DNA from: an endosymbiont of Galathealinum brachiosum | Lineage (GTDB): Bacteria > Pseudomonadota > Gammaproteobacteria > SZUA-229 | Direction of reading: 5' to 3' | Assembly (NCBI GenBank): GCA_003349885.1 | Contig: QFXC01000008.1 | Coordinates: forward strand, 248,001-312,000 | Length of the DNA stretch: 64,000 nucleotides | In this document: positions 24,783 through 48,367 of the stretch, piece after piece | Layout of the letters: every line of letters starts with the position of its first letter | How positions within the stretch are numbered: position 1 is the stretch's first letter | Notes under the pieces: model-generated | What the model was told of the DNA's origin: nothing | Seen by the model: the letters and a program-made list of their open reading frames with translations, nothing else | Database searches by the model: none | Made by a program: the position numbers and the translations under genes

Positions 24783-24906
24783 AAAGATCTGCTATTAGAA
24801 ATAATTAGCGCGTGATTATATAAGAATTTAAGATTAGCGGATATTAGTTATTGCGAAGTATCTATAAACTTAAACGCTACACTAATCCGTTTATTTTTAA
24901 TCAAAC

Positions 24907-24933
24907 AAAAAAGGGCGGCTATTTGCCGCCCTC
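24907..24933 (-). terminator. Rho-independent terminator after pstS
   Basis: A 7-bp GC stem GGGCGGC / GCCGCCC with a TATTT loop is followed on the minus strand by TTTTTTG. It lies 22 bases downstream of the pstS stop and insulates aroA from pstS transcription. Confidence 0.92.
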
Positions 24934-24954
24934 TTATCAACAATAAATTAAGAC

Positions 24955-25932
24955 TTATAATTGATTCAGGTACTTGTCAACAACCTTAGCAGGTAGAGGA
25001 ATATAACCATCTTTAATAACCACTTCCTGACCCTGCTTAGATAAAATTAACTTCATAAACTCTTTCTGTAAAGGAGCTAATTCTTTATTTGGGTGCTTGT
25101 TTACGTAAACATACAGAAAACGTGATAAAGGATATGCTCCTGATACTGCATTTGCAGATGAAGCATCAACAAATTTACCAGATGCCTTCTTGCGTAATGG
25201 AACAGCTCTTACACCAGAAGTTTTATAACCAATACCTGAGTAACCAATGCCGTTTACAGAACTACTTACTGACTGTACAACTGAAGCTGAACCTGGCTGC
25301 TCATTTACATTGTTTTTGTAATCGCCCTTACAAAGTGCTTTTTTCTTGAAATAACCATATGTACCAGATACTGAGTTACGACCATACATTTGAATATCAC
25401 GGTTCTTCCAGTTACCTGTCATACCCAGATCGCCCCATTTAGTGATATCGTCATCAGAACCACATTTTCTTGTAGATGAGAACACAGCATCAACATCAGC
25501 AATCGTCATGCCTTTAACAGGGTTATCTTTGTTCACATATACCGCTAGAGCATCAATCGCAACCGGGATTGCTGCTGGCTTATAACCATAACGGTCTTCA
25601 AATGCTGCAATCTCTTTTGATTTCATCTTACGACTCATTGGGCCGAAATTTGAAGTCGCCTCTGTTAGAGCCGGTGGAGCAGTTGATGAACCAGCAGCCT
25701 GAATTTGAATATTTACATTAGGGTAAGAACGTTTAAAAGATTCAGCCCATAATGTCATTAAATTAGCCAGCGTATCAGAACCCACACTTGATAAATTTCC
25801 CGAAATACCACTAACAGATTTATATTCAGGAACACCTTCATCAACAGAGACAGCTGATGCAACACCTGTAGACATTAAACCAACACAAATTGCTGCTGTA
25901 GCAAATGCTGTTGTGATTTTGTTTTGTTTCAT
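24955..25932 (-). CDS. pstS: Phosphate ABC transporter, periplasmic binding protein PstS
   Basis: A 325-residue phosphate-binding protein with a signal peptide (about 1-27, ending GVASA). Ligand-loop motifs are SSVGSDTLANLM, AAGSSTAPPALTEATSNFGPMSR (about 80-102) and GRNSVSGTYGYFKKKAL. It delivers phosphate to PstC/PstA. Here it is the last gene of the pst-pho cluster, behind phoR, rather than first, and it has its own Pho-box promoter and terminator. That should let it be expressed at much higher level than the other subunits. Confidence 0.93.
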   Translation of the reverse strand: MKQNKITTAFATAAICVGLMSTGVASAVSVDEGVPEYKSVSGISGNLSSVGSDTLANLMTLWAESFKRSYPNVNIQIQAAGSSTAPPALTEATSNFGPMSRKMKSKEIAAFEDRYGYKPAAIPVAIDALAVYVNKDNPVKGMTIADVDAVFSSTRKCGSDDDITKWGDLGMTGNWKNRDIQMYGRNSVSGTYGYFKKKALCKGDYKNNVNEQPGSASVVQSVSSSVNGIGYSGIGYKTSGVRAVPLRKKASGKFVDASSANAVSGAYPLSRFLYVYVNKHPNKELAPLQKEFMKLILSKQGQEVVIKDGYIPLPAKVVDKYLNQL

Positions 25933-25980
25933 TATTTAAAACTCCGAATTAAGTAAGTATGGCTATTTTGTTTGAATAAT

Positions 25981-26020
25981 GTGAATGCAAAATGACAGAG
26001 ATATTACAGTTTTGTTAAAT
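25981..26020 (-). promoter_or_regulatory. Putative Pho box upstream of pstS
   Basis: On the minus strand CTGTAAT and CTGTCAT are spaced exactly 11 bp (26003-26009 and 25992-25998). Two weaker half-sites lie at the same 11-bp period (26014-26020 and 25981-25987). A CATTAT candidate -10 lies ten bases after CTGTCAT. The array ends 48 bases before the pstS start. Confidence 0.78.
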
Positions 26021-26041
26021 TAGGACTATTTATCAAAATGA

Positions 26042-27301
26042 CTAGGTAAAGGGAAAATAACAGCTAAATACCGTTCCTTTATTAATTTCGCTTTCTATCT
26101 GTAAAACAGCACCATGACGATCCAGTATCTGCTTAACAATAGCAAGCCCCAGACCTGTCCCTCCTTTCTCTCTTGAACGACCTTCATCTACCCGGTAAAA
26201 ACGCTCTGTTAATCTAGAGATATGCTCATAGCCTATGCCATCTCCATTATCTTCTACATGTATATAACTACCTGTAGAGTCTGTAGAAGTCGTAAGTTTT
26301 ATAAATCCATTATCAGGTGTATAACGAACTGCATTTGTTAATAAATTTGATATAGCAGTTCGAATTTCTTCATAACTTCCATTTATTTTTATCGGCTCAA
26401 TTTCAATAGTAATATCATGCGAACCCTGATCAAGTGAAACAGCTTCATTATAGACTTCATTTAATAATGCTATTGTATCAATCTGGACATTAGTACCGAT
26501 AAAAGAAGATGTTTCAAGTTTAGCTAGTTCAATTAATTCAGCTATTATTTTTTCCATTCGAATCGTTTGTTGATATATTTTATCTACTGGATATTTATTT
26601 ATTTCATCACAATTATTCTGTAATGTTTCTATGTATCCAGACATAACAGTTATAGGTGTACGTAACTCATGAGAAGCATTAGATATAAAATCCCTTCGCA
26701 TTTCGTCTAATTTTATACGTTGAGTTATATCTCTGGCACTTAACAGGTACTGCCCCTGACCATAACTTGTTACATTAAGTAATAATTTCTGGTTCTGATT
26801 ATCAAACTCAAGTGGCTTTTTAAAATTATTTCCATTTAGGTATTTTATAAATTCAGGTTGTCTAATTAGATTATCAATACGCTGACCGACATCAAGGCCT
26901 GAGCGTAAACCGAATAAAATTTTAGAAGCTGGATTAAACCATTCAATTTCATTATTTGAATTTAAAACAATTGTAGCGTATGGCAAAGCTTTAGTTGATT
27001 TCTGAAACTGCTTGAGAATTTTTGTTAATCTTTTACGAGATCCTCTTTGACGTTTATACTGATTATGTAATTGAAAAAAAGCATCATCCCAGATACCAGT
27101 AGCTTCAGGCGTGTTATTAGAAGGCTTATTTAACCAGTTAACAAGTCTATTAAGATTATATAAATGCCAGACAACATAACCCAGTAAACCCACAAATACT
27201 GCCGTCATGGCAATGCCGAAAAACGAACCAATGACCAGCATGAATATCAACCATAAAGTTAATAAAGATAATTCATGCTGTAAACTGCTAGAGAATGTCA
27301 T
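26042..27301 (-). CDS. phoR: Phosphate regulon sensor histidine kinase PhoR
   Basis: A 419-residue kinase with the PhoR layout. Two N-terminal membrane helices (about 12-48) have almost no periplasmic loop. A PAS domain spans about 95-190. HisKA follows with the phospho-His in FISNASHELRTPITVMSG, then HATPase with NLLTNAVRYTP, DNGDGIGYEHI and GGTGLGLAIVKQI. It phosphorylates PhoB under phosphate limitation and is held off by the Pst-PhoU complex. It lies 2 bases downstream of phoB. Confidence 0.95.
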   Translation of the reverse strand: MTFSSSLQHELSLLTLWLIFMLVIGSFFGIAMTAVFVGLLGYVVWHLYNLNRLVNWLNKPSNNTPEATGIWDDAFFQLHNQYKRQRGSRKRLTKILKQFQKSTKALPYATIVLNSNNEIEWFNPASKILFGLRSGLDVGQRIDNLIRQPEFIKYLNGNNFKKPLEFDNQNQKLLLNVTSYGQGQYLLSARDITQRIKLDEMRRDFISNASHELRTPITVMSGYIETLQNNCDEINKYPVDKIYQQTIRMEKIIAELIELAKLETSSFIGTNVQIDTIALLNEVYNEAVSLDQGSHDITIEIEPIKINGSYEEIRTAISNLLTNAVRYTPDNGFIKLTTSTDSTGSYIHVEDNGDGIGYEHISRLTERFYRVDEGRSREKGGTGLGLAIVKQILDRHGAVLQIESEINKGTVFSCYFPFT

Positions 27302-27303
27302 TA

Positions 27304-47537: not shown

Positions 47538-47604
47538 AGATCTATTTCCTAAAGTTAACAAATAATTTCGTGTGAATTTATTGTTAAGATATTAAGGAAG
47601 ACTT

Positions 47605-47644
47605 ATTACAGACTTATGAGTGCTTTATTACATTTGTGTTACAA
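47605..47644 (-). promoter_or_regulatory. Putative Pho box array upstream of the porin gene
   Basis: Four minus-strand half-sites lie at an exact 11-bp period: TTGTAAC (47638-47644), ATGTAAT (47627-47633), CACTCAT (47616-47622) and CTGTAAT (47605-47611). This is the spacing required by PhoB. The array ends 67 bases before the porin start. Confidence 0.75.
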
Positions 47645-47757
47645 GATCGAAAATCAGGGAACTTTTCTGAGAATGAATACATTGTTAAAAAGAATAGCCT
47701 TACTGTACAATTATAAAACATACTTCATATGCAATACTCTCTAGCAAAGGAATAGGC

Positions 47758-48039
47758 ATGTATTCATGTACTTTTATTAAATATCTCTGGAAAGATTCAG
47801 ATACAAAAAGACTATATAGAACCCTTGAAAAGCAGATAAGCTTGCCTTTCACTCCTGTTATCGGGCAAGAAATTGGTGAAGGCGACTGGTTTTCCGGGAA
47901 AATTGAACGTGTTGTCTGGGATAATATTGATAATATTTTTACTGTTAAAGTATCAGATATCACACCTAAAGAAGGAATTTCAGCTGAACTATTATTAGAT
48001 ATAGCAATAAAACAGGGCTGGAATGCTCAGGATAAATAA
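47758..48039 (+). CDS. Unrecognised 93-residue protein
   Basis: I do not recognise this protein. It is soluble and begins MYSCTFIKYLWKDSD, with a ribosome site AAAGGA nine bases upstream of the ATG. A hydrophilic body contains GEGDWFSGKIERVVWD (about 40-55) and a C-terminal helix. No membrane segment or Cys motif is present. It is followed by a second small gene in the same direction, and the two form a unit ending at a strong terminator. Confidence 0.65.
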   Translation: MYSCTFIKYLWKDSDTKRLYRTLEKQISLPFTPVIGQEIGEGDWFSGKIERVVWDNIDNIFTVKVSDITPKEGISAELLLDIAIKQGWNAQDK

Positions 48040-48069
48040 AAATCTATTATTTTTTATACAGAGGCACAA

Positions 48070-48306
48070 ATGAAAAAATTAAAAAATGAAAAAGAACTTT
48101 TAAAAAAAGCCATTATTGAAGGTGTCAAATACGGTGAGGCCAGAGGTGTTGTAGAATTTGAGCCCACTGATTCAGCTAATGAAAAAACCGAATATATTTA
48201 TCGACTACTGGTACATGACAAGGTAATACAACCAATACCTGAAGATCAGATATCTATTAAATCTATGAAACATAAAATTGCTATCTGGGCTTCAAAACTT
48301 AAATAA
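48070..48306 (+). CDS. Unrecognised 78-residue protein
   Basis: A small Lys-rich protein of unknown function (KKLKNEKELLKKAIIEG at the N-terminus, then YIYRLLVHDKVIQPIPEDQ). AGAGG lies five bases before the ATG. It resembles no family I can name; the first 25 residues should form an amphipathic helix. It is 30 bases downstream of the 93-residue gene and is followed by a terminator that overlaps the convergent tyrA. Confidence 0.6.
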   Translation: MKKLKNEKELLKKAIIEGVKYGEARGVVEFEPTDSANEKTEYIYRLLVHDKVIQPIPEDQISIKSMKHKIAIWASKLK

Positions 48307-48323
48307 AGCATATTAAATAAATT

Positions 48324-48367
48324 AAAAAAGCACGAAGCTTACATACAAAAGGTATCTCGTGCTTTTT
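48324..48367. terminator. Bidirectional terminator overlapping the tyrA 3' end
   Basis: AAAAAAGCACGA ... TCGTGCTTTTTT forms a 12-bp stem with T-runs on both strands. The right arm lies inside the tyrA coding sequence (codons for KKAR) and the tyrA stop codon (48339-48341) lies in the loop, so the same bases code protein and end both transcripts. Confidence 0.78.

What the first reader, a model, noticed from the sequence alone, without database searches (positions are those of the whole stretch)
24783..48338. A phosphate and hydrogenase island splits the gyrA-to-pyrF supercluster exactly between tyrA and aroA
gyrA, serC, serA, pheA, hisC and tyrA (48.3-56.7 kb) and aroA, cmk, rpsA, ihfB, lapA, lapB and pyrF (18.0-24.8 kb) are on the same strand and in the order that is contiguous in Pseudomonas, where tyrA and aroA are even fused. 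Here about 23.5 kb with pst-pho, hyp-hyn and a porin sits between them, bounded by strong terminators at both ends (24907-24933 and 48324-48367). No transposase or attachment repeat was seen, so the mode of insertion is open.
Basis: partly seen in the sequence, partly recalled or inferred. Interest (0 to 1): 0.72.

Follow-up and report, generated by a model that had tools for sequence, protein, structure and literature searches.

The report
Stepwise operon island between tyrA and aroA
Between two old housekeeping gene blocks this bacterium carries a phosphate-uptake operon that its genus likely took over from a distant relative in the same family, with a hydrogen-enzyme cluster that was likely added later at the same joint, the only joint of the block where other genera of the family were seen to carry inserts of more than 1 kb.

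Summary
The layout is as reported: gyrA-serC-serA-pheA-hisC-tyrA and aroA-cmk-rpsA... are split by 23.56 kb. It is an insertion, but not one event. In the family, tyrA and aroA lie within 0.6 kb in 24 of 29 genomes that have both on one contig. In the four other genomes of the genus the pst-pho operon also borders tyrA, aroA or both, but none shows this arrangement: hyn-hyp is absent between tyrA and pstC in G002 and G004, not seen in G003, and G001 has hyn plus a glycogen operon. The phosphate operon is a foreign type: gene order and tree place it with genus g11 of the other family clade, while sister genera carry another type elsewhere. The three genomes checked keep that older site's neighbours without the operon. 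Inserts above 1 kb occur at this joint in 5 of 29 family genomes, against 0 of 271 instances of the other joints. No integrase, tRNA or flanking repeat was found; a terminator-based reason failed. This is a new member of a known kind: a flexible genomic island without mobile elements.

The parts
54163..56730 (-). gyrA, first gene of the upstream housekeeping block
   Evidence: NCBIfam GyrA
49209..54000 (-). serC, serA, pheA, hisC
   Evidence: NCBIfam
48339..49196 (-). tyrA, upstream border of the joint
   Evidence: NCBIfam prephenate dehydrogenase
48324..48368 (-). hairpin spanning the tyrA stop codon, 21-nt loop; its 3' arm lies in the new DNA
   Evidence: sequence; not seen in G001-G004 or G009
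47758..48039 (+). 93-aa ORF, no Pfam family; of six genomes searched it occurs in G000, G001 and G002, one copy each, at this joint
46554..47561 (-). porin (Porin_4); the 84% homologue in G002 also sits at this joint
44522..46243 (+). hynL, [NiFe] hydrogenase large subunit
   Evidence: CGVC and CLAC motifs
43244..44512 (+). isp2, DsrK/HmcF-like iron-sulfur protein
   Evidence: below the curated cut-offs of those models; the name isp2 rests on gene order
42588..43247 (+). isp1, TmcC/HmcE-like membrane anchor
   Evidence: below the curated cut-offs of those models; the name isp1 rests on gene order
41430..42530 (+). hynS, hydrogenase small subunit with Tat signal
40984..41427 (+). hupH-like hydrogenase expression protein
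   Evidence: Pfam HupH_C
40399..40908 (+). hydrogenase maturation protease (hynD/hupD type)
40008..40235 (-). hypC (75 aa)
   Evidence: PF01455 81.6 bits; ORF
34345..40006 (-). hypA, hypB, hypD, hypF, hypE
33594..34310 (+). AhpD/CMD-like protein between hypE and pstC
24955..33467 (-). phosphate operon, type B order: pstC pstA pstB phoU phoB phoR pstS
   Evidence: NCBIfam; order compared with 20 other genomes
24909..24935 (-). intrinsic terminator after pstS
24800..24844 (-). block with TATAAT upstream of aroA, conserved in G000, G001 and G003: candidate aroA promoter after the split
   Evidence: the consensus scan did not list it, so predicted only
23469..24782 (-). aroA, downstream border of the joint
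   Evidence: NCBIfam
18010..23246 (-). cmk, rpsA, ihfB, lapA, lapB, pyrF
   Evidence: cmk and lapB by NCBIfam; the others by conserved order and homology in relatives

Best explanation
The 23.5-kb stretch is a flexible genomic island that likely grew step by step at one joint of an ancient gene string, rather than by one insertion. Step 1 (inferred from trees, gene order and the emptied old site): the ancestor of the genus took a complete pst-pho operon from a relative near genus g11. The operon came to lie between tyrA-grx and aroA and became the only pst system found, and the older operon was lost from its own place beside gph. Step 2 (inferred): the divergent hypCABDFE / hynD-hupH-hynS-isp1-isp2-hynL cassette, also of other-clade affinity, came to lie between tyrA and pstC in the G000/G001 line. 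Other species of the genus filled or trimmed the same interval differently. Step 3 (predicted): aroA, cut off from tyrA, is transcribed from its own upstream promoter. How the DNA got in is not shown. With no integrase, tRNA or repeat, illegitimate joining for the first entry and flank-homology recombination for later exchange inside the genus is my best guess.
For: Adjacency: 24 of 29 family genomes with both genes on one contig have tyrA and aroA within 543 bp; the 29 leave out 8 of 37 (G001, G003 and G004 split over contigs; G002, G007, G010, G025 and G029 with one gene missing or cut). 12 of 12 measurable class outgroups are within 488 bp; 74 of the 75 named loci with tyrA, of 80, are within 232 bp. 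Nested order: G004 tyrA-grx-pst...TonB receptor-aroA (its two contig ends share 99 nt), G002 tyrA-grx-porin-orf93-pstC, G003 pst-aroA (35-nt end overlap with its tyrA contig), G001 glycogen operon-hyn-pst-aroA; sister genus g6 (G009) has only grx between tyrA and aroA. Foreign pst: type B order in the four g1 genomes with a readable operon and in the 6 genomes of g11, g7 and g14 among 20 fetched; type A, whole or in part, in the other 14. Housekeeping tree: g1 with g5+g6, support 95. pst tree: g1+g11, support 99.9. AU tests reject pst of clade I as a clade (p 1.6e-4), pst g1+g5+g6 (1.9e-9), {g7,g11,g14} without g1 (1.6e-36) and housekeeping g1+g11 (1.4e-7). Old site: o205-amidohydrolase-ubiG-gph kept in the three genomes checked, G000, G001 and G004, no pst beside it; one long PstC each in G000, G001, G003 and G004. 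hyn: g1+g6 rejected, p 4e-4. Hotspot: 5 of 29 against 0 of 271.
Against: In G001 and G003 the tyrA side and the aroA side lie on different contigs, so linkage there is inferred (G001 has no end overlap); in G002 aroA was not found. Base composition does not mark the island as foreign: GC3 of its genes is 0.19-0.31, of the flanking genes 0.24-0.37. The hyn branch is poorly resolved inside its clade; {g9,g11,g13} as a clade is only weakly rejected (p 0.03), so source and direction are open, and loss from the joint in G002/G004 is as simple as gain in G000/G001. tyrA+aroA do not follow the donor (g1+g11 rejected, p 5e-9) and place g1 with g5+g6 at support 17 only; in g11 tyrA and aroA are adjacent, so import by recombination in these flanks is not supported for the first step. 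The string is not closed elsewhere: G035 has 823 bp between serC and serA, and outside the family G055 (hisC-tyrA) and G057 (pheA-tyrA) exceed 1 kb. Several genomes also have short PstC-like permeases (e.g. G016, G022) that were not placed. Tree groups were partly chosen after seeing identities, and the trees are quick LG+G4 trees.
Confidence: 0.82

Rival explanations
1. One 23.5-kb element carrying pst, hyp-hyn and porin together was inserted once between tyrA and aroA.
For: One interval, both borders clean, flanks collinear with sister genera.
Against: No other genus member shows this content. In G002 and G004 pst lies beside tyrA with no hyn between, and hyn of G004 lies on a contig away from the joint. 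The pst tree pairs g1 with g11, which the hyn tree does not resolve.
Confidence: 0.04
2. A chromosomal rearrangement (inversion or translocation breakpoints) separated the two halves and brought resident operons between them.
For: G029 has its tyrA half and cmk half 0.92 Mb apart with only the aroA tail left. Nitrosomonas europaea is split at the same place with both options left open (PMC1173090, passages read).
Against: In G000 both halves keep order, strand and 23.5-kb spacing. The pst operon is not the resident type, and the resident type was not found.
Confidence: 0.08
3. Both pst types were present in the family ancestor and were lost differently, so no lateral transfer occurred.
For: Type B occurs in three clade II genera as well as g1.
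Against: No genome of the 58 shows two long (about 730-aa) PstC matches. Under pure loss g1 should lie outside g7, g11 and g14 in the type B tree, which is rejected.
Confidence: 0.05

Closest known systems
Chromosomal hotspots without mobile elements (Oliveira et al. 2017, PMC5635113; abstract and passages read)
   Same: Fixed flanking core genes, changing content among relatives, no integrase or transposase found, laterally acquired genes.
   Different: Their hotspots come from 80 species; here the spot is seen at genus and family level. The raised recombination in flanking core genes that they report was not measurable here.
Flexible phosphate islands of HIMB59 (PMC10734472; abstract and passages read)
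   Same: A pst operon at one fixed chromosomal place whose companions vary between relatives.
   Different: An alphaproteobacterial order. Here the operon is a foreign type that displaced a resident one, and the companions are hydrogenase, glycogen and porin genes.
Split of the tyrA/aroF(=aroA) supraoperon in Nitrosomonas europaea (PMC1173090; passages read)
   Same: The same ancient gene string is broken between tyrA and aroA.
   Different: In the passages read, a very large insertion and a transposition were both left open; here relatives give the order of events.
hynS-isp1-isp2-hynL hydrogenases of Thiocapsa type (PMC3102683; passages read)
   Same: isp1 and isp2 between hynS and hynL as in Thiocapsa roseopersicina; hynD, hupH and hypCABDFE as in the Alteromonas set.
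   Different: Ordinary member; here hyp and hyn diverge, and the cassette is found at other chromosomal places in several relatives.

Membership tests
Flexible genomic island / hotspot without mobile elements | Same core genes flank different contents in related genomes | tested here: met
   G000, G002, G004 on linked or overlapping contigs, G001 and G003 by one side, and genera g3, g5, g8
Flexible genomic island / hotspot without mobile elements | Content laterally acquired | tested here: met
   pst gene order, tree and AU tests; hyn weaker (p 4e-4 and 0.03)
Flexible genomic island / hotspot without mobile elements | No integrase or transposase | tested here: met
   21 of 23 ORFs of 90 aa or more in G000 scanned with NCBIfam
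Flexible genomic island / hotspot without mobile elements | Raised homologous recombination in flanking core genes | not testable with these tools
   needs many strains of one species; only tree placement of tyrA+aroA was tested
Integrative element or tRNA-type genomic island | Integrase, tRNA site or flanking direct repeats | tested here: not met
Thiocapsa-type (group 1e, label recalled) [NiFe] hydrogenase | hynS-isp1-isp2-hynL order | tested here: met
Thiocapsa-type (group 1e, label recalled) [NiFe] hydrogenase | NiFe-site CxxC pairs in the large subunit and Tat signal on the small subunit | tested here: met
   CGVC at 61, CLAC at 552; Tat model
pst-pho operon | PstSCAB, PhoU, PhoB, PhoR in one run | tested here: met

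The most novel reading that the evidence does not exclude
The tyrA/aroA joint is a family-specific docking place that takes up whole operons without any recombinase, and this genus exchanged its phosphate-uptake system through it, dropping the resident one at another place.
Probability: 0.35. Interest if true: 0.58.

Novelty: new member of a known kind. Interest (0 to 1): 0.4.

Why it matters
It gives a readable series of states (grx only; grx + pst; grx + porin + pst; glycogen + hyn + pst; porin + hyn-hyp + pst) for how an old conserved gene string is opened and filled. It also shows a phosphate-uptake operon replaced by a foreign one at a new address. That makes it testable why one of about a dozen joints in a conserved string accepts inserts in one family while the others do not.

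Tried and rejected
Terminator explanation of the hotspot: intact tyrA-aroA gaps are not enriched in terminators (2 of 24, 1.2 expected from shuffles), while cmk-rpsA has 16 of 27 and no inserts. So a ready-made intrinsic terminator does not explain the spot.

Class-wide hotspot: not supported. Among the 80 named loci the tyrA-aroA joint has 1 insert above 1 kb in 75, no more than several other joints (rpsA-ihfB 2 of 53).

Composition as a mark of foreign DNA: GC and GC3 of island and flanks overlap. Porin or the 93-aa ORF as recombining repeats: G000 has one copy of the 93-aa ORF, and its other porins are 28-29% identical. An early reading that a 238-aa ORF in G001 was the AhpD-like gene was wrong; it is a GGDEF protein. 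A paper search for reports of inserts at this joint (six terms, at least four required) listed two papers, judged unrelated from title and abstract start; one search listed PMC1173090 only.

Counting caveats: genomes are not independent. At genus level the >1-kb cases are g1, g3 and g5 (homologous response regulator + GGDEF pair, perhaps one event) and g8 (rhamnose genes and others). Of the 37 family genomes, 8 were left out of the 29.
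Full report
What is there. The window is G000:C8:248001-312000 of a 3.77-Mb genome in 14 contigs, 99.5% complete. The interval from tyrA to aroA is 23,559 bases by protein match.

Is it an insertion? tyrA and aroA were sought in 58 genomes: 37 of the family (own genus g1: G000-G004) and 21 of other families of the class. Both lie on one contig in 29 of the 37 family genomes; in 24 of these they are within 543 bp. In the 12 measurable outgroups the largest gap is 488 bp. 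Of the 80 named gammaproteobacterial-type loci, 75 have tyrA upstream of aroA, 40 of them in one open frame; 74 are within 232 bp and one is at 1053 bp. The five without a tyrA match are L134, L159, L161, L168 and L176. So adjacency is ancestral and the split is derived.

Not one insertion. G002: tyrA-grx-porin-orf93-pstC (cut by the contig end) on one contig. G004: tyrA-grx-pstC...pstS, whose contig end shares 99 nt with the contig pstS-TonB receptor-aroA. G003: tyrA-DnaJ-related gene-two ORFs without Pfam match, contig end sharing 35 nt with the contig pstC...pstS-aroA. G001: tyrA at a contig end; on another contig orf93-CBS-glk-glgC-GH57-malQ-glgB-glgA-glgP-gnd-zwf-pgl-OprP-type porin-hynL-isp2-isp1-hynS-hupH-hupD-GGDEF-pstC...pstS-aroA. 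The sister genus g6 (G009) has only grx between tyrA and aroA. pst is therefore the shared, older layer; the rest turns over. No glgP match was found in G000, the window's own genome, while the four other genus members have one. In other genera the joint carries a response regulator + GGDEF pair (g3, g5; G018 also a Tll0287-like gene and a histidine kinase) or rhamnose genes with others (g8, 6.8 kb).

Foreign phosphate operon. In g1, g11, g7 and g14 the order is pstC-pstA-pstB-phoU-phoB-phoR-pstS (type B). In the 14 other genomes of the 20 fetched it is phoB-phoR-pstS-pstC-pstA-pstB-phoU or a part of that order (type A); contig ends or missing hits hide phoB/phoR, pstS or phoU in some, and G013 has its best phoB/phoR hits on the other strand. 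The housekeeping tree of nine genes, 39 rows, puts g1 with g5 and g6, then g3 and g10, then g12; g11, g7 and g14 are in the other half of the family. The pst tree, 24 rows, puts g1 with g11 inside type B (support 99.9). AU tests reject g1 pst with its sister genera (1.9e-9), clade I pst as a clade (1.6e-4), and type B of g7, g11 and g14 as a clade without g1 (1.6e-36); housekeeping rejects g1+g11 (1.4e-7). In G009 the resident operon lies beside o205-amidohydrolase-ubiG-gph (Pfam: amidohydrolase, methyltransferase and HAD; the names ubiG and gph are recalled). G000, G001 and G004, the three checked, keep these four genes without pst. G000, G001, G003 and G004 each have one long PstC only (G002's is cut by its contig end). 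The simplest reading is replacement by a transferred operon at a new place.

Hydrogenase cassette. The divergent hyp / hynD-hupH-hynS-isp1-isp2-hynL set is found away from tyrA and aroA in G009, G022, G029, G031, G034 and G051. The large subunit of G000 is 92% identical to that of G034 (g9), whose aroA is 70% identical, but 73% to that of the nearer G009, whose aroA is 80% identical. g1+g6 as a hyn clade is rejected (p 4e-4). In G004 hyn lies on a contig away from the joint. G002 (74% complete) and G003 (90%) gave no hynL match, though G002 has hypD, hypF and hypE on another contig. G001 keeps hyn but not hyp at the joint. Whether hyn entered the joint in the G000/G001 line or left it in the others is open. 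The best-matching solved chain is 3myr_B (recalled as Allochromatium vinosum).

The joint as a spot. Across the gene string in the family, gaps above 1 kb occur in 5 of 29 tyrA-aroA joints and 0 of 271 instances of the other joints (Fisher p 6e-6, genomes treated as independent); the next largest is 823 bp at serC-serA in G035. Outside the family G055 (hisC-tyrA, 1089 bp) and G057 (pheA-tyrA, 1241 bp) exceed 1 kb elsewhere. With only two to three further independent events besides g1, chance by joint number or intergenic length is about 0.001-0.02. The bias is not seen class-wide. Terminators do not explain it.

Consequences. The pst terminator would stop transcription ahead of aroA. A block with TATAAT, conserved at 24800-24844 in G000, G001 and G003, and of which two exact pieces were not found in the G004, G009 and G013 loci, is the candidate aroA promoter; the consensus scan did not list it.

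Known before. The tyrA/aroA split in Nitrosomonas (PMC1173090, passages), hotspots without mobile elements (PMC5635113, abstract and passages) and pst-bearing flexible islands (PMC10734472, abstract and passages) make this a new case of a known kind.

Noticed in passing
window 31269-33467 and 29632-31269: PstC (732 aa) and PstA (545 aa) match the permease families in their C-terminal parts; roughly the first 400 and 250 residues have no NCBIfam match.
   Followed up: no
G000 genome: No glycogen phosphorylase match is found in this 99.5% complete genome, while the four other genus members have one, in G001 next to hyn and pst.
   Followed up: partly
L281 9894-9974 and L205 8942-9787 (G029): In G029 only 27 residues near the end of aroA match beside cmk, and the tyrA half lies 0.92 Mb away; assembly fault or rearrangement.
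   Followed up: partly
L186 (G001:C52): G001 carries another hydrogenase gene region with hypA, hypB and hypF relatives.
   Followed up: no
L235 (G034): G034 of clade II carries a type A pst operon that groups with genus g3 in the tree, a likely transfer in the opposite direction.
   Followed up: partly
cmk-rpsA joint in the family: 16 of 27 cmk-rpsA gaps hold a terminator-like hairpin, 1.5 expected from shuffles.
   Followed up: no
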